Part shown: in pieces, positions 33,301 to 39,180 of the stretch
Numbering within the stretch: position 1 is the stretch's first letter
Layout of the letters: the number at the start of each line of letters is the position of its first letter
From: Opitutus sp. GAS368
GTDB taxonomy: Bacteria > Verrucomicrobiota > Verrucomicrobiia > Opitutales > Opitutaceae
Assembly: GCA_945871085.1 (NCBI GenBank)
Contig: CAMBVX010000019.1
Location: 1 to 39,180 of the forward strand
Direction of reading: 5' to 3'
DNA length: 39,180 nucleotides
Notes under the pieces: generated by a model
What the model was told of the DNA's origin: nothing
Databases searched by the model: none
Seen by the model: only the letters and a program-made list of their open reading frames with translations
Made by a program: the position numbers and the translations under genes

Positions 33301-33697
33301 GGCCGGGTCTCCGACCCGCCCACCGGGGCCGTTCGGTCCCGCCCCGCCAAGCAAAACAAACCGCATCGGCCGCCACGCCTCGCGCACTCGCCCTTGAAGA
33401 CGCCACCGCGCTCCTCGCCGCCCCGGACGTCGTGCCGAGCAAATCAACCCCCGCTGGGCCGCACCGGCTCGCTCGATATCCGCTCCGCCGTTCGCCTCGA
33501 TCCTCAACATTTCCAGCGAACATTTTCCGCGCCACGCTTGCCCTCCCCCTCCCCCGCCCCTACGCCCTTTCTCGTCCACCGAAAAATCACTCTCCTTCCG
33601 CCATCTGACCTAACCCAACTCTAAATTCATTTCGCGTAGCTTCGGCTGCTGTCCATCACGAAACCGCTAATTTCGAACCAAAGGACATCGCTCGATG
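33301..33697. other. Intergenic region after hisI, no gene seen
   Basis: About 400 bases. There is no U-rich terminator. The first 260 bases are GC-rich and resemble coding composition, but no frame gives a recognisable product. From about 33560 the sequence becomes pyrimidine-rich and then AT-richer. A weak 5-bp hairpin (CGAAA/TTTCG) lies at 33659-33675, just before the structured element. Confidence 0.4.
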
Positions 33698-33870
33698 CAC
33701 GCCCCCGACTGGGGGCGTGTTGAAAGCGTTCCTTTGAGGGCTCTTAGCGGTGCCTGTGATGGGACGTGTGTAGATACGTCCCCTCTTCGTTTTAGGCACC
33801 GCAGAGCTTTCAAAGGAAAGCCGTCCGTAACAGGGCTGAACATCGCGCGAATGTTCATGCCCTGTGGCTT
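33698..33870 (+). ncRNA. Candidate structured RNA or folded repeat upstream of the RM-like operon
   Basis: Three hairpins sit close together. The first is a perfect 9-bp stem (33698-33706/33711-33719, loop GACT). The second is a 24-pair stem (33730-33755/33794-33817) with a 2-base bulge and two adjacent G-T positions, enclosing a 7-bp hairpin (GGGACGT/ACGTCCC). The third runs 33818-33870: 5 bp, a 7-base bulge, then 14 bp with a 1-base bulge. Hairpins two and three abut with no gap. The G-T positions are pairs only if the plus strand is RNA. No known RNA family is recognised, and a folded mobile repeat is an alternative. Confidence 0.4.
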
Positions 33871-33924
33871 CATACTTTGAATCTTCGGCGTCGCCTGACG
33901 TGTCGCCTGTCCCCGCGCAACGTC

Positions 33925-33943
33925 GGTTCGCTATAGTCGAACC
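33925..33943. promoter_or_regulatory. Short inverted repeat upstream of the RM-like operon
   Basis: GGTTCG-CTATAGT-CGAACC is a 6-bp inverted repeat ending 24 bases before the first methyltransferase-like start. Its place fits an operator or a promoter-proximal control site. It also resembles a tRNA T-arm superficially, but no tRNA body accompanies it. No C-protein gene is nearby. Confidence 0.3.
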
Positions 33944-33967
33944 CGCTCTACCCTGCCGCGTTCGCGT

Positions 33968-34612
33968 ATGAGCTTGGTAAAATCCAAGCAGCGCGTCGCC
34001 GATCATGGAGAGGTTTTCACGCCCGCGTGGCTGGTCGAGGCGATGCTCGACTTGGTGAAGGGTGAGACGGAGCGCATCGACTCGCGTTTCCTAGAGTCGG
34101 CGTGCGGGGACGGTAACTTTCTCGTGCAGATTCTGCGGCGCAAACTTGCCGCCGTAGAACTCAAATACGGCAAGTCCGACTTCGAGCGCCGGCACTACGC
34201 GCTACTCGCGCTGATGTGCGTTTATGGGATCGAACTGCTGCCGGACAACATCGCCGAGTGCCGCAGCAACCTGCTGGACATTTTCGCCGAGTATCTGGCC
34301 CTGGCTCCGGCTGACGACCTGTATCGCGCCGCGCTCTACGTGCTGTCGCAAAATCTCGTTCACGGCGACGCCCTGTCGATGCGCACCCAAACAGGAGAGC
34401 CGATCACCTTCGCCGAGTGGGGTTCTCTGGGTAAAGGCCGATTCAATCGACGCGACTTCCGCTTCGACAGCCTCACCCAGTCATCGGCCTTCAGTGCAGA
34501 GGGATCGCTATTCGCCAATCTCGGCATGCACGAGATTTTCACGGCGGCCAAAACCTACCCGCCGATGACGGTGGAAGAGTTGGCCGCCGCCGCGCCGGAG
34601 GCGACGTCATGA
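33968..34612 (+). CDS. Short N6-adenine-methyltransferase-like protein without NPPY motif
   Basis: The 214-aa protein has the N-terminal part of a gamma-type N6-adenine methyltransferase: GEVFTPAWLVEAMLDLV (residues 14-30) and a motif I-like SAM loop FLESACGDGNFLVQIL (41-56). GIELLPDNIAECRSNLL matches motif II and VHGDALSM motif III. No NPPY/DPPY motif IV is found before the stop. The C-terminal 60 residues (RFNRRDFRFDSLTQSSAF) are unrecognised. It might therefore bind SAM but not methylate alone. It overlaps the next, complete methyltransferase gene by ATGA, so the two proteins are probably made together. A heteromeric or regulatory role is inference. Confidence 0.7.
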   Translation: MSLVKSKQRVADHGEVFTPAWLVEAMLDLVKGETERIDSRFLESACGDGNFLVQILRRKLAAVELKYGKSDFERRHYALLALMCVYGIELLPDNIAECRSNLLDIFAEYLALAPADDLYRAALYVLSQNLVHGDALSMRTQTGEPITFAEWGSLGKGRFNRRDFRFDSLTQSSAFSAEGSLFANLGMHEIFTAAKTYPPMTVEELAAAAPEATS

Positions 34613-36192
34613 GCGACCAAGCCAGCTTCACCTTGCGCCGGCGCAATCCGGACGTGCTGACGTGTATCGCAAACCTCTCCAACGACGAGGTGTTCACGCC
34701 GCCCGAGTTTGCCAACCGGATGCTCGACACGCTGACCGAGGCGTGGGCCGCCAACCACGGTGGGGCGAACCTCTGGGCTGACCCGACGGTGACCTTTCTC
34801 GATCCCTGCACGAAGTCTGGCGTGTTTCTGCGTGAGATTACCCGCCGCCTGACCGAAGGGTTGGCGAAAAAGATTCCGGGTCTGACCCAGCGAGTGAACC
34901 ACATTCTGACGAAGCAGGTGTTCGGCATCGGGATCACGAAGATAACCAGCCTACTCGCGCGGCGTAGCGTGTATTGCTCGCGGCACGCGGACGGGAAGCA
35001 CTCCATCGCCAAAAACTTCGCCAGCGAGACCGGCAATATCTGGTTCAAGCGTATCCCTCACTCATGGGAAGGCGACCGGTGCAAATTTTGCGGGGCTGGA
35101 AAATCAGTTTTCGACCGGGCGGACGGCTTGGAGACCCACGCCTACGCGTTCATTCACACCGACAACATCAAGGCCCGACTGACCGAACTCTTTGGGAAAA
35201 ACATGCAATTCGACGTTATCATCGGTAATCCGCCCTATCAGTTGGCGAGCGACGGCGGGACACGGGACGGGCCAATCTATCAGCACTTCGTCGAACAGGC
35301 GAAGCGACTTCAGCCAAGATTCCTCGCCATGATCATCCCATCACGCTGGATGGCTTCCGGTCTTGGTCTCAGCGAGTTTCGCCAAGCAATGCTCGGCGAC
35401 CGGCGCATGCGCGAACTGGTGGACTATCCGGCGGCCAACGACGTGTTCCCCGGCGTCGAGGTCAAGGCGGGTGTCTGCTATTTTCTTTGGGACGCATCTC
35501 ACGACGGCGACTGCAAGGTGACAACGGTTCGGGGTGGTGAAGTCCTTGGGCCGATTCAGAGGAACCTTGGTGAATACGACGTTTTCGTTCGGGATGCGCG
35601 TGCCGTGTCGATCCTGCACAAGGTTCTCGGCCGCAGTGAAGCGCCCATCAACACGATCCTCGCTAGGGACAAAGAGTTTGGCTGGACATCGAACTTCGAC
35701 GGCTTCCACGAGAACGAGCGTTCAGGCGATGTGCCGCTCTACTACATTCGCAAGATGAAGCGCGATGTGGGTTACATCGAACGAAACGCAGTAACTAAAA
35801 GTGCCGATCGGATAGACACATGGAAGGTTCTGGTTCCACAAGCGTTCAATGGCGGAGATGCGATCCCTCATCAGATATTGGGTAAGCCGTTAATTGCTCC
35901 GTTGCCGTCAGTCTGCACTCAGTCGTTCCTCTTCTTCAGCGTTAGCTCCCGTAAGGCGGCCGAAAGTCTTCAGTCGTATTACACGACGCGCTTTTTCCGA
36001 TTCCTCGTCTCGGTGCGAAAGATAACTCAACACGCGACGCACTCCACATACGTTTGGGTGCCGATGCAGAGCTGGGATCGCACTTGGACGGACGAGGCTC
36101 TTTTCACAAAATATGGCATCACCCAAGAAGAGCAGGCCTTCATCGGGTCTCAGGTCAGGGAGATGAACCTCGATGCCGCCGCCGATGAGTAA
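34609..36192 (+). CDS. Eco57I-like N6-adenine DNA methyltransferase
   Basis: The 527-aa protein has DEVFTPPEFANRMLDTLTE (26-44), motif I FLDPCTKSGVFLREI (63-78), motif II VFGIGITKITSLLARR, and the catalytic motif IV FDVIIGNPPYQL with NPPY at 207-210. Between motifs II and IV an insert has Cys123, His126 and a CxxC pair (Cys158-Cys161, DRCKFCGAGKS), a possible metal knuckle. The region after NPPY (PIYQHFVEQAKRLQPRFLAM, IIPSRWMASG) is typical of Eco57I/type IIG-type enzymes, and the later part should hold target recognition. No nuclease motif is seen. The gene is less C-rich at third codon positions than its core neighbours. Confidence 0.85.
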   Translation: MSDQASFTLRRRNPDVLTCIANLSNDEVFTPPEFANRMLDTLTEAWAANHGGANLWADPTVTFLDPCTKSGVFLREITRRLTEGLAKKIPGLTQRVNHILTKQVFGIGITKITSLLARRSVYCSRHADGKHSIAKNFASETGNIWFKRIPHSWEGDRCKFCGAGKSVFDRADGLETHAYAFIHTDNIKARLTELFGKNMQFDVIIGNPPYQLASDGGTRDGPIYQHFVEQAKRLQPRFLAMIIPSRWMASGLGLSEFRQAMLGDRRMRELVDYPAANDVFPGVEVKAGVCYFLWDASHDGDCKVTTVRGGEVLGPIQRNLGEYDVFVRDARAVSILHKVLGRSEAPINTILARDKEFGWTSNFDGFHENERSGDVPLYYIRKMKRDVGYIERNAVTKSADRIDTWKVLVPQAFNGGDAIPHQILGKPLIAPLPSVCTQSFLFFSVSSRKAAESLQSYYTTRFFRFLVSVRKITQHATHSTYVWVPMQSWDRTWTDEALFTKYGITQEEQAFIGSQVREMNLDAAADE

Positions 36193-38722
36193 GACTATCG
36201 ACGAAATCCTCGCGCCCAAGCCGGAGGCTCGTCCGCGCATTTACGCCTACTCCATCGCGGACAAGGCGCACGCGGGGCTACTCAAGATTGGCCAGACTAC
36301 GCGGGACGTGAAGCAGCGCGTCGCCGAGCAGCTCCAGACGGCCGCGATCAAAAACTACACCATCGAACTCGACGAATCCGCCGAGCGCGACGATGGCACG
36401 ATTTTCAGCGACCACGCGGTGCGCGCGGCTTTGGCAAAGAAGGGTTTTGAAAACACCGCGTTGGAGTGGATGCGCTGCACGCTGAAGGCCGTGAAGACCG
36501 TCCTCACCGAATTGCGCACGGGCAAGAAATTGACCGGCACGCACCACGAGACGTTCGTGATGCGGCGGGAGCAGGTCGAGGCGGTCGAAAAAACCTACGA
36601 TTATTTCAGGTCGATCTGGGCGGAGAACAAAACGGCGGCGCCGCGGTTCCTATGGAACGCGAAGATGCGTTTCGGGAAAACGTTCACCAGTTACCAACTC
36701 GCCAAAAAACTCGGGGCCAAGCGCGTGCTCGTGGTGACGTTCAAGCCGGCCGTGGAGGATGCCTGGCAGACCGACCTCGAATCGCACGCGGACTTCAACG
36801 GCTGGCAATACCTGTCAAAGTCCTCCGGCGACGATCCGACGCAGATCAACCGCAAAAAGCCGGTCGTCTATTTCGGCTCCTTCCAAGACTTATTGGGCCG
36901 TGACGATGCGGGGAATATTAAGGCCAAGAACGAGTGGCTGCATGCGGTGAATTGGGACTTGGTGGTGTTCGACGAATACCATTTCGGCGCGTGGCGCGAC
37001 ACGGCCAAAGAGTTGTTTGAGGGCGAGGAGGAGGCGGTCGCCAAGAAGGAGACCAAGCTCGAATACGCCCCCGGCTTGGAAAGCGTGAACGAGGACATCG
37101 GCGAGCTCTCGACCCAGGAGGCTGAGTTTCTGCCCATCACCACCAAGGCCTACCTGTACCTCTCCGGCACGCCGTTTAAGGCGCTCGCGACGGGTGAGTT
37201 TATCGAGGAGCAGATTTTTAATTGGACCTACACCGACGAGCAGCGGGCCAAGGAGGCATTCGCGACCCAGCAGCCCGCCCCGTGGAATCCCTACGGCGCG
37301 TTGCCGCAGATGCGGCTGCTCACCTACCAGATGCCGGATGAACTGGTGGCGGTGGCGAGCGCGGGGGAGTTCGATGAGTTCGATCTGAACGCGTTTTTCG
37401 AGGCCTCGGGTGAGGGCGCCCAGGCGCAGTTCAAGCACAAGAGTGACGTGCAAAAGTGGCTGGAGATCATCCGCGGTGGCCATGCGTCCACGTCGGTGGA
37501 ATCCCTCAAGACCGGCACGCGACCGCCGTTTCCGTATTCCGATGTGCGCCTGTTGCCGTATCTCCAGCACGCGTTCTGGTTTTTACCGGACGTCGCAGCG
37601 TGTCGTGCCATGGCGAATCTGCTGGCCGAGAAACACAACGTATTCTGGCGCGATTACACGGTGATCGTCGCGGCGGGTGCCAGCGCGGGCATCGGCTTGG
37701 AGGCGCTGCCGCCCGTGCGCCAGGCCATCGGCGGCGGGTTCGACACCAAGACGATCACGCTCTCGTGCGGCAAACTCACCACGGGCGTCACCGTGCCGCA
37801 GTGGTCGTCCATTTTGATGCTGCGCAACCTGAAGTCGCCAGAGACGTATTTTCAGGCGGCGTTTCGCGTGCAATCGCCGTGGTCCATCAAGAACCCGAAT
37901 GGCGATAACCCGCACGAGGAGGAAATGCTCAAGCCGGTCTGTTTCGTTTTCGACTTCGCGCCCACGCGTGCCTTGCGGCAACTTTCCGAATACGCGATCG
38001 GGCTCTCGCCGAACGAACCGAATCCAGAGAGTGCGGTCCGGGACCTCGTGTCGTTCCTGCCGGTGCTGGCCTACGACGGTGCGAACATGACGCAGATCGA
38101 TGCGGGCGGCATCCTCGATATCGCGATCGCCGGCACCTCGGCTACGTTGCTCGCGCGCAAATGGGAGAGCGCACTGCTGGTGAACGTGGACAACGACACC
38201 TTGCGCCGGATTCTCGATAACCCCGAGGCGATGGCTGCGGTGGGGCGCATCGAGGGTTGGCGCGCGCTCGGTGACAACATCATCGAAACCATCATCAACA
38301 AGAGCGAGCAAGTGAAGGCGCTCAAAAACAAGGCGAAGGACAAGGACCTGTCGGCGAAGGAGCAGAAGCAGCTCACCGACGAGGAGCGGGAGTTCAAATC
38401 CAAGCGAAAGCTCGTGCAGGAAAAGTTGATCAAGTTCGCGACCCGTATTCCCGCCTTCATGTATCTCACGGATTTTCGTGAGAACACGCTGCAGGACGTG
38501 ATCACCAAGATCGAACCGGACCTATTCGAAACGGTCACGGGTCTGACGGTGAAGGATTTTCACCTACTCGTGCGACTCCGGGTGTTCAACACCGAGCAGA
38601 TGAATCAGGCGGTGTTCGCCTTCCGGCGTTACGAAGATGCCTCGTTGAGCTACACGGGCATCGAGAGTCATGAGGGCCTCACGCACTACGGGTTATACGA
38701 CACCGTGGTGGCGAGGGAGTGA
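36185..38722 (+). CDS. GIY-YIG (T5orf172-like) domain fused to SF2 helicase, restriction-subunit-like
   Basis: The 845-aa protein starts with a GIY-YIG-type nuclease domain of the T5orf172/MUG113 kind: RIYAYSIAD (18-26), GLLKIGQTTRDVKQRVAEQ (31-49) and DHAVRAAL near 77-84. An SF2 helicase core follows, with motif I NAKMRFGKTFTSYQLAK (158-174), motif II DEYH (263-266) and motif III SGTP (327-330). The second RecA domain has SCGKLTTGVTVPQWSSILML and motif VI QAAFRVQSPW. A charged helical stretch lies near 700-745. It probably cleaves unmodified DNA in an ATP-dependent way. ATG 36185 overlaps the previous stop; ATG 36173 is the alternative and has GGGAG 10 bases upstream. Confidence 0.85.
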   Translation: MSKTIDEILAPKPEARPRIYAYSIADKAHAGLLKIGQTTRDVKQRVAEQLQTAAIKNYTIELDESAERDDGTIFSDHAVRAALAKKGFENTALEWMRCTLKAVKTVLTELRTGKKLTGTHHETFVMRREQVEAVEKTYDYFRSIWAENKTAAPRFLWNAKMRFGKTFTSYQLAKKLGAKRVLVVTFKPAVEDAWQTDLESHADFNGWQYLSKSSGDDPTQINRKKPVVYFGSFQDLLGRDDAGNIKAKNEWLHAVNWDLVVFDEYHFGAWRDTAKELFEGEEEAVAKKETKLEYAPGLESVNEDIGELSTQEAEFLPITTKAYLYLSGTPFKALATGEFIEEQIFNWTYTDEQRAKEAFATQQPAPWNPYGALPQMRLLTYQMPDELVAVASAGEFDEFDLNAFFEASGEGAQAQFKHKSDVQKWLEIIRGGHASTSVESLKTGTRPPFPYSDVRLLPYLQHAFWFLPDVAACRAMANLLAEKHNVFWRDYTVIVAAGASAGIGLEALPPVRQAIGGGFDTKTITLSCGKLTTGVTVPQWSSILMLRNLKSPETYFQAAFRVQSPWSIKNPNGDNPHEEEMLKPVCFVFDFAPTRALRQLSEYAIGLSPNEPNPESAVRDLVSFLPVLAYDGANMTQIDAGGILDIAIAGTSATLLARKWESALLVNVDNDTLRRILDNPEAMAAVGRIEGWRALGDNIIETIINKSEQVKALKNKAKDKDLSAKEQKQLTDEEREFKSKRKLVQEKLIKFATRIPAFMYLTDFRENTLQDVITKIEPDLFETVTGLTVKDFHLLVRLRVFNTEQMNQAVFAFRRYEDASLSYTGIESHEGLTHYGLYDTVVARE

Positions 38723-38949: not shown

Positions 38950-39180
38950 ATGGCCCTGAGTTTCGAGTGGAACGAGAGCAAGGCGAAATCAAACCTCGCC
39001 AAGCATGGCGTGAGCTTTGAAGAAGCCTCCACCGTCTTCGGCGATCAGCGATCGCTGACGATTCCCGACCCGGCCCATTCACAGATGGAGGAACGCGCGA
39101 TTGTGCTGGGGCAATCGCATGAGTGGAAATTGCTGGTTGTCGTGCATACGGAGCGGGGTGACAATATCCGCATCATCAGC
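38950..39180 (+). CDS. brnT: BrnT-type toxin (partial, cut by window edge)
   Basis: The frame is open for 77 codons to the window end. It reads MALSFEWNESKAKSNLAKHG, then VSFEEASTVFGDQRSLTIPD and LLVVVHTERGDNIRIIS. This is the BrnT ribonuclease toxin pattern: FEW-(N/D)-x-x-K, N-x-x-KHGVSFEEA, and the HTERGD-IRIIS strand. BrnT toxins are RelE-like fold RNases paired with a BrnA antitoxin gene downstream, which would lie beyond the window. It begins 227 bases after the helicase gene; the gap holds no supportable gene. Only the last residues of the domain are missing. Confidence 0.85.
   Translation, partial: MALSFEWNESKAKSNLAKHGVSFEEASTVFGDQRSLTIPDPAHSQMEERAIVLGQSHEWKLLVVVHTERGDNIRIIS

What the first reader, a model, noticed from the sequence alone, without database searches (positions are those of the whole stretch)
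33968..38722. Three-gene RM-like module: short MTase-like protein, NPPY methyltransferase and GIY-YIG-helicase fusion
The three genes overlap (ATGA, then an 8-base overlap), so they are a unit. The restriction part differs from classical type III Res and type I HsdR: the nuclease-like domain is an N-terminal GIY-YIG/T5orf172 type fused to an SF2 helicase, and modification is split over two proteins. There is no HsdS and no PD-(D/E)XK motif that I could see. Similar sets may exist in databases, but the arrangement is not a standard RM type.
Basis: partly seen in the sequence, partly recalled or inferred. Interest (0 to 1): 0.7.

Follow-up and report, generated by a model that had tools for sequence, protein, structure and literature searches.

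The report
DrdVI-type restriction system with two-in-one gene
The three genes are a member of a known but little-studied family of bacterial DNA-defence systems (the DrdVI family), and comparing about a hundred relatives suggests that the middle gene is read twice, making one protein for marking the cell's own DNA and a longer one for attacking foreign DNA.

Summary
The three genes are real and overlap like an operon. They are not a new RM type: they match DrdVI of Deinococcus wulumuqiensis NEB 479 in order and sequence (M1 70%, M2 54%, R 77% identity). M1-2.DrdVI was cloned and is assigned GCAGCC (PMC6430315). The family is widespread (580 relatives found). Specificity sits in a hypervariable TRD of M2; the window's is 28% identical to DrdVI's, so another motif is likely.

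Comparison gave something I found in no paper I saw. M1 carries the AdoMet motifs but no NPPY; M2 carries NPPY but altered AdoMet motifs (90 of 90 loci each). Four viral records without detectable R encode only M1 plus the M2 C-half; in four other loci the M2 N-half is fused to R. A conserved Shine-Dalgarno plus start codon lies inside M2 exactly where the C-half begins (80 of 90 loci, 19 expected; supported by held-out loci and single-chain relatives). I infer that M1 plus internally started M2C is the methylase, and that M2N couples the same TRD to R. The window's own internal site is weak, and some loci do not fit. Nothing was tested at the bench.

The parts
33968..34612 (+). M1: AdoMet-binding half of the methylase (motif X GEVFTP, motif I ESACGDGNFL, motif II YGIE; no NPPY)
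   Evidence: 70% to M1.DrdVI; motif I glycines 90/90, acidic motif II 90/90, NPPY-like 0/90
34609..36192 (+). M2 full length: M2N + catalytic/TRD half, 59.4 kDa
   Evidence: Eco57I E 1.9e-33; 54% to M2.DrdVI; AF2 model of full M2 pLDDT 86.7
34609..35202 (+). M2N: homologue of M1 with altered AdoMet motifs; proposed coupler to R
   Evidence: M1-M2N hhalign probability 97.5%, E 7.8e-12 over 56 columns; M2N fused to R elsewhere; not found in four R-less viral records
34795..34830 (+). pseudo motif I of M2N, FLDPCTKSGVFL (first Gly of GxG replaced by Lys)
   Evidence: Lys in 90 of 90 loci
35080..35091 (+). CxxC (Cys158, Cys161 of M2), possible metal site
   Evidence: both Cys in 90 of 90 loci; function not tested
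35191..35202 (+). position of the conserved internal Shine-Dalgarno (TTTGGGAAAAAC here; often TTTGGAGGCGAC in relatives)
   Evidence: weak in the window (-4.2 kcal/mol, rank 86 of 90)
35203..36192 (+). M2C: product predicted from the internal ATG (Met199), 329 aa, 37.3 kDa, NPPY plus TRD
   Evidence: M2C-only genes can start at the same Met
35227..35238 (+). catalytic motif IV NPPY
   Evidence: 90 of 90 loci
35500..35991 (+). target recognition domain, hypervariable
   Evidence: median pairwise identity 0.35 against 0.78 for R; no correlation with R
36173..38722 (+). R: GIY-YIG nuclease-SF2 helicase/translocase, 95.7 kDa
   Evidence: (77% to DrdVI R); start 36173 supported over 36185
36230..36502 (+). 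GIY-YIG (T5orf172-like) domain of R, about residues 20-110
36554..37015 (+). ResIII/SF2 helicase N-lobe (AKMRFGKTF, DEYH)

Best explanation
It is an intact-looking restriction-modification system of the DrdVI family. SHOWN by sequence: family membership, three-gene co-occurrence, an exchanged TRD in M2, reciprocal loss of AdoMet and catalytic motifs between M1 and M2, and a selected internal start in the M2 gene across the family. INFERRED: (1) M1 (AdoMet half) and M2C (catalytic half plus TRD, started internally at Met199) assemble into one gamma-class N6-adenine methylase that marks one strand of an asymmetric site. (2) Full-length M2 keeps a pseudo-AdoMet half (M2N) that couples the same TRD to R. 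(3) At unmethylated sites R translocates with its helicase motor and cuts with its GIY-YIG domain. If the site is methylated on one strand only, as GCAGCC must be, cutting probably needs two sites or colliding motors, as in Type III/ISP enzymes (recalled analogy). One gene thus gives restriction and modification the same specificity while keeping the activities in different assemblies.
For: Homology and order to DrdVI. M1-2.DrdVI and M1-M2.MaeIV clones gave m6A motifs in E. coli (PMC6430315; PMC10113651). Co-occurrence. TRD: (Spearman R-M1 0.83, R-TRD -0.01; 13 TRD clusters in 75 loci). Reciprocal motifs. M1 homologous to M2N, not M2C. Viral records with M1+M2C in which neither R nor M2N was found: L173, L229 (single ORFs), L271, L171 (separate genes) (positive control L110); L173 lies beside a T7-like RNA polymerase. 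R-M2N fusions with a separate M2C gene: L198, L282, L304/L007, L378. Internal start: SD 80 of 90 against 19.0 (sd 3.7) by synonymous recoding; column second of 530, behind only the real M2 start; Gly(-3) GGA 69 + GGG 6 of 75, the most codon-conserved of 157 sites; other conserved internal Mets not in excess except one near the M1 3' end; hold-outs of the same type 10 of 13 against 1.8. Single-chain R-M2 genes: start-type codon in 26 of 28, 9 of 10 Leu/Val codons TTG or GTG against 1.7 expected, SD 19 of 28 against 7.3.
Against: The window's own internal site is among the weakest (TTTGGGAAAAAC ATG, -4.2 kcal/mol, rank 86 of 90), so M2C may be made poorly here. AF2 folds full-length M2, including M2N, as one complete CamA/BrxX/TaqI-like methylase, so M2N could also pack on M2C; the M1-M2C fusion model had a low-confidence M1 half and does not show the composite site. 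Of 135 genome and viral loci, 12 have R and M2C without an M2N hit: 4 truncated by contig ends, 6 single-chain or distant, and L042 and L075. One record with no R found keeps M2N (L178, contig ends 2.1 kb downstream). Among M2C genes separate from R-M2N, two do not keep the Met (L198, L378) but two do (L282, L304). Of four M2C-only genes beside which no M2N was found (L171, L271, L042, L075), two (L042, L075) lack an SD-like site at that Met. More distant loci show a weaker internal-start signal (17 of 29 against 8.5). Two single-chain genes lack a start codon there (L155 ATA, L322 CTC; both have ATG one codon upstream). Motif II of M2N was placed by eye. No expression, methylation or cleavage data exist for this genome.
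Confidence: 0.7

Rival explanations
1. Plain DrdVI-type system: full-length M2 together with M1 is the methylase, one holoenzyme M1-M2-R does everything, and there is no second M2 product; the internal ATG/SD is incidental.
For: The passages I saw describe only M1, M2 and R; AF2 folds full-length M2 as a complete methylase; the window's own internal SD is weak.
Against: 80 of 90 SD-like sites against 19 expected from synonymous recoding; same-type hold-outs agree; in single-chain relatives a start codon rather than a methionine is kept (26 of 28; 9 of 10 Leu/Val codons against 1.7 expected); M2C-only genes exist.
Confidence: 0.2
2. M2N is a real second cofactor or sensing site: the invariant Lys motif binds AdoMet in another way or another ligand, and M1 is a regulatory subunit.
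For: Motif X of M2N and the Lys/Gly pattern are invariant or nearly so, so M2N is not simply decaying.
Against: The acidic motif II residue (placed by eye) is lost in 90 of 90 M2N and kept in 90 of 90 M1; four viral records keep M1 and M2C while no M2N was found.
Confidence: 0.1
3. A silent copy: the operon is intact in sequence but not functional in this organism.
For: A fragment of the same kind occurs in the same genome (66-residue R tail at 92% identity) and pieces in a same-genus genome, so copies are lost often; the M1 start has no SD-like site (+1.7).
Against: All three ORFs are open and the motifs tallied are intact.
Confidence: 0.1

Closest known systems
DrdVI (Deinococcus wulumuqiensis NEB 479, pDrdVI; M1-2.DrdVI, GCAGCC)
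   Same: Gene order, all three proteins (70/54/77% identity), GIY-YIG-helicase R, gamma-type M2 with NPPY and C-terminal TRD.
   Different: TRD only 28% identical and in another cluster, so another motif is expected; internal SD weaker in the window than in DrdVI (-4.2 against -6.4).
MaeIV (Methanococcus aeolicus; M1-M2.MaeIV, GCACY)
   Same: Described as the same split methylase family (PMC10113651, passages).
   Different: Sequence not compared here; archaeal; other motif.
Single-chain R-M2 relatives plus separate M1, e.g. on Enterococcus and Lactobacillales plasmids (PADLOC model PDLC03626)
   Same: Same modules: GIY-helicase, M2N, M2C, mostly with a separate M1.
   Different: R and M2 fused, about 1,300-1,490 aa where complete; the start-type codon then lies inside the fused gene (26 of 28).
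Type ISP (LlaGI, LlaBIII)
   Same: Helicase-coupled m6A methylase with one-strand modification (recalled); the M2 model aligns to the LlaGI methylase at Z 20.0 and LlaBIII at 19.4.
   Different: Single polypeptide with Mrr-type nuclease (recalled) against three genes with GIY-YIG.
McrB-S / Cas11 (second protein from an internal start in a defence gene)
   Same: Two products from one defence gene (McrBS: PMC12707154 passage; Cas11b: PMC11899642 abstract).
   Different: There the short product modulates or completes an effector; here it is proposed to be the catalytic half of the methylase.

Membership tests
DrdVI family (split M1/M2 plus GIY-YIG translocase-REase) | three adjacent genes M1-M2-R | tested here: met
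DrdVI family (split M1/M2 plus GIY-YIG translocase-REase) | each protein homologous over its length to its DrdVI counterpart | tested here: met
   70%, 54% and 77% identity
DrdVI family (split M1/M2 plus GIY-YIG translocase-REase) | R carries an N-terminal GIY-YIG nuclease | tested here: met
   key residues invariant; T5orf172 in 7 of 11 family members, though not in the window's protein itself
DrdVI family (split M1/M2 plus GIY-YIG translocase-REase) | m6A on one strand of an asymmetric motif | not testable with these tools
   no methylation data
DrdVI family (split M1/M2 plus GIY-YIG translocase-REase) | same motif as DrdVI (GCAGCC; not required for membership) | tested here: inconclusive
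   TRD identity 28%, different TRD cluster: suggests no, but the motif cannot be derived
Type I RM | separate HsdS specificity subunit | tested here: not met
   no fourth gene in the operon; specificity-like variation lies in M2
Type III RM | Mod plus Res pair | tested here: not met
   R has a ResIII helicase but a GIY-YIG N-terminus, and modification is M1 plus an Eco57I-type M2 with NPPY after motif I and a C-terminal TRD
Type ISP | nuclease, helicase, methylase and TRD in one polypeptide | tested here: not met
   three separate ORFs

The most novel reading that the evidence does not exclude
DrdVI-type systems encode two alternative assemblies around one recognition half (M2C). M1:M2C, with M2C made from an internal start in the M2 gene, is the methylase. 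M2N:M2C (or R-M2N with M2C), whose AdoMet half has been turned into a pseudo-cofactor domain, is the recognition module of the restriction motor. Specificity is shared by construction, and the split into protector and attacker is set by which homologous half docks on M2C. Phages take only the protector (M1-M2C).
Probability: 0.43. Interest if true: 0.8.

Novelty: new member of a known kind. Interest (0 to 1): 0.57.

Why it matters
The locus itself adds one more member, with an unassigned specificity, to a family that is widespread but for which I saw motifs of only two members in the papers read. The family-level result matters more: it offers a reason why the methylase is 'split', predicts an extra protein that the annotated records I saw do not list, and suggests how a system with one recognition domain separates protection from attack. 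It is directly testable in DrdVI or MaeIV clones, and TRD exchange in M2 would be a simple route to new specificities.

Tried and rejected
Novel RM type: rejected once the plasmid search returned pDrdVI and the literature named the family.

Same specificity as DrdVI: not supported; the TRDs are 28% identical and in different clusters. I could not derive the window's motif.

Structure: no convincing relative of R or M2 in the PDB by sequence. The AF2 model of the M1-M2C fusion L229 had a poor M1 half, so Foldseek on it says little about the composite site; the M2 model was good but is a monomer and cannot tell whether M1 or M2N docks on M2C. No multimer prediction was run.

Generality of the internal start: a first set of more distant loci did not show it clearly (6 of 15). 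Later counts give 17 of 29 against 8.5 expected for other-type and 10 of 13 against 1.8 for same-type loci; that call left 40 places without the upstream pseudo motif out of both counts (25 of them printed, with and without SD). The hold-outs were not used to find the signal but come partly from the same scans. My first count of single-chain genes (16 of 16) used too narrow a motif pattern and missed 12 of them; the recount is 26 of 28, and is the one used. The idea that M2C genes separate from R-M2N always lose the start codon failed on that recount (2 of 4).

Rows dropped: loci with short flanks, distant R or missing ends; loci lacking a full-length copy of any of the three proteins (90 kept; L001-L010 left out). 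Loci are related by descent and some are near-duplicates, so counts are not independent events; the synonymous-recoding null and the other Met/Gly positions in the same genes are the controls.

M2N as always present with R: not strictly true (12 of 135 without an M2N hit, 4 of them truncated by contig ends); low HMM sensitivity may explain the single-chain ones. Second-round HMMs of M1 and M2N cross-hit each other, so each region was given to the better-scoring one.

More full M1-M2C fusions in plasmids, phages or Verrucomicrobiota genomes: I saw none, of which only the best rows are listed.

Not in print: the searches listed no paper that I could see to report an internal start in M2, the reciprocal motif loss or M2N-R fusions; I opened only the papers named next, and REBASE was not available. 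Read in whole: PMC6430315. Passages only: PMC4996451, PMC10113651, PMC1564403, PMC12707154, PMC4752239. Abstract and outline only: PMC11899642, PMC12898733.
Full report
OBSERVATION. Gene 2 starts inside the stop of gene 1 (ATGA at 34609). Gene 3 starts at 36173 (20-base overlap, Shine-Dalgarno-like site, -8.2 kcal/mol) rather than 36185 (8-base overlap, +0.3). Pfam gives N6_Mtase/MmeI_Mtase (below cut-off), Eco57I (E 1.9e-33) and ResIII (E 3.7e-7) for the three. The GIY-YIG domain is not scored by Pfam in the window's protein, but is in 7 of 11 family members, and its key residues are invariant. The window lies on contig 19 of a draft genome of 630 contigs. R was found in 6 of 95 genomes searched around it, the own genome included. 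GC is 63-70% upstream (28-32.5 kb) and 56-62% over the operon, in keeping with acquisition by transfer.

WHAT IT IS. A plasmid search returned R at 77-82% identity on plasmids of Sphingopyxis, Pseudosulfitobacter, Rhizobium, Acuticoccus and Deinococcus. The Deinococcus one is pDrdVI of NEB strain 479. There the same three genes lie in the same order, with 70%, 54% and 77% identity to M1, M2 and R. The genome paper assigns M1-2.DrdVI to GCAGCC, m6A, type IIG, and states that these methylase genes were cloned and expressed in E. coli (PMC6430315, whole text). [quoted passage not shown] that relative's methylase gene resembles M1 at its N- and M2 at its C-terminus (PMC4996451, passage). [quoted passage not shown] So this is a member of a known family. 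Fifty-five more loci lie in viral contigs.

CO-OCCURRENCE. With a close and N-terminally complete R and at least 2.6 kb upstream, M1 and M2 precede R in 56 of 58 genome loci, 29 of 30 viral loci, 7 of 8 plasmid/phage loci and the window; in 21 of these more than 150 bases lie between two of the genes. The exceptions are L042, L063 and L140 (no M1) and L016, where a transposase, a recombinase and streptomycin-resistance genes lie between M2 and R.

SPECIFICITY. In 75 close loci (R at least 66% identical to the window), identity along M2 drops after about residue 300. Median pairwise identity is 0.78 for R, 0.67 for M1, 0.69 for M2 up to residue 297 and 0.35 for the TRD. R correlates with M1 (Spearman 0.83) but not with the TRD (-0.01). 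There are 13 TRD clusters at 50% identity; the window is in a cluster of 24 and DrdVI in one of 25; their TRDs are 28% identical. The TRD is therefore exchanged between systems, and the window's motif is probably not GCAGCC.

RECIPROCAL DEGENERATION. In 90 loci with all three proteins, M1 keeps motif I (both glycines 90 of 90) and the acidic motif II residue (90 of 90) but never has an NPPY-like motif (0 of 90). M2 has NPPY in 90 of 90, but the first glycine of its motif I is Lys in 90 of 90, and the acidic motif II residue, at the position I placed by eye, is Gly, Ala or Ser in 90 of 90. M1 and the N-half of M2 (M2N) are homologous over motifs X and I (hhalign probability 97.5%, E 7.8e-12, 56 columns); M1 and M2C are not (0.3%). 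So the methylase is not simply cut in two: M2 has kept a second, altered copy of the AdoMet half.

NATURAL REARRANGEMENTS. Two viral records carry one ORF that joins M1 directly to M2 from 'MQFDVIIGNPPY' on (L173/L257 and L229/L172). Two more carry M1 and M2C as separate neighbouring genes (L271 and L171). In none of the four whole records was R or M2N found (the same queries found them in the control L110; records may be fragments, and L171 ends just after M2C). L173 lies beside a T7-like RNA polymerase and a gp2.5-like gene, so what looks like a lytic phage carries the protecting half. In four other loci M2N sits at the C-terminus of R while M2C is a separate gene (L198, L282, L304 and the Arthrobacter plasmid locus L378). 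In Firmicutes plasmids R, M2N and M2C are one chain, mostly with a separate M1. One reading fits most of this: M1+M2C is the methylase, and M2N goes with R. What does not fit: of 135 genome and viral loci, 12 have R and M2C but no M2N hit, of which 4 are cut by contig ends, 6 are single-chain or distant, and L042 and L075 are unexplained; L178 keeps M2N with no R found, its contig ending 2.1 kb on.

INTERNAL START. M2C-only genes can begin at the Met of 'M(Q/K)FDV..NPPY' (L171, L271, L042, L075; L210 and L212 open with it). In the 90 three-gene loci this codon is ATG in 89 and GTG in one, and an SD-like site precedes it in 80 of 90, against 51 of 726 other internal Mets. Drawing synonymous codons from each gene's own usage gives 19.0 (sd 3.7) instead of 80. 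By mean anti-SD energy the position ranks second of 530 columns of M2, just behind the real M2 start (-7.38 and -7.46 kcal/mol). The Gly three codons upstream is GGA in 69 and GGG in 6 of 75 loci, never GGC or GGT, while all Gly codons of M2 are 20% GGA and the 18 other conserved Gly positions 6-35%; it is the most codon-conserved of 157 four- or six-fold sites. Other conserved internal Mets of M1, M2 and R show no such excess, except one near the 3' end of M1 (9 against 3.9); at one Met of R SD-like sites are avoided (0 against 21.9). Thirteen held-out loci of the same type have GGA 11, GGG 2, and SD 10 against 1.8 expected; 29 held-out loci of other type have 17 against 8.5. In 28 single-chain R-M2 genes the aligned codon is ATG, GTG or TTG in 26, although the residue is Met in only 17; of ten Leu/Val codons nine are TTG or GTG where 1.7 would be expected; SD-like sites are 19 of 28 against 7.3 (some are near-duplicates). 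The two misses (L155, L322) have ATG one codon upstream. What is conserved is thus mostly a start codon rather than a methionine. Where M2C has its own gene beside R-M2N the codon is lost in two (L198 AGG, L378 AAG) and kept in two (L282, L304), so that comparison decides nothing. In the window the site reads TTTGGGAAAAAC ATG and is weak (-4.2 kcal/mol, rank 86 of 90).

MECHANISM. Best reading: M1 and internally started M2C form a one-strand m6A methylase; full-length M2 brings the same TRD to R through M2N; R moves with its helicase and cuts with GIY-YIG at unmodified sites. That M1-M2 clones methylate fits but does not separate M2 from M2C. AF2 gives a good full M2 with the CamA/BrxX/TaqI/LlaGI fold, which allows the bolder view that M2N:M2C is a cofactor-less recognition module competing with M1:M2C. 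The M1-M2C fusion model was too poor to help.

COMPARISON AND VERDICT. The window's operon is a new member of the DrdVI family with an unassigned specificity. The internal start, the reciprocal degeneration and the mobile M2N are, as far as can show, not described. Precedents for two proteins from one defence gene are McrBS (PMC12707154, passage) and Cas11b (PMC11899642, abstract).

Noticed in passing
window 38950-39180: A BrnT-type toxin gene runs off the window's end just downstream of the RM operon (Pfam BrnT_toxin E 1e-25).
   Followed up: no
window 33580-33967: The spacer between hisI and M1 is a repeat: 83-85% identical partial copies on two other contigs of the same genome.
   Followed up: partly
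L002 (own genome contig 401, 356-553): A 66-residue tail of a second R copy (92% identical) survives beside what looks like a glycine decarboxylase gene (my reading, not searched); a same-genus genome has scattered pieces of R and M2: repeated gain and loss.
   Followed up: partly
L353 9446-14718; L151/L266; L276: Extra M2C (TRD-carrying) ORFs near the system, one of them inverted in L151; they could be cassettes for switching specificity.
   Followed up: no
L284, L285, L300: Several M2-like ORFs around M1 downstream of a helicase in viral contigs, five in a row in L300; from second-round HMMs and not verified.
   Followed up: no
L046, L070, L112, L044 (between M1 and M2); L035 (between an M2 fragment and M2): Foreign genes inside the operon: IrrE-like metallopeptidase (twice), KilA-N protein, PDDEXK_3 protein, and an AAA/SMC-like ATPase in L035; 5 of the 10 inserts searched had no Pfam match.
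   Followed up: partly
L189 6737-7400: M2 is interrupted right at the MKF(D) position of the internal start by other DNA; not identified.
   Followed up: no
M1 C-terminus (e.g. L019, L018: QLDLF): Many M1 tails carry a short (Q/E)xxLF motif, which recalls the beta-clamp-binding consensus (recalled, not tested).
   Followed up: no
window M2 residues 158-161: An invariant CxxC in M2N (both Cys 90 of 90) plus a Cys kept in 89 of 90 upstream may bind a metal.
   Followed up: no
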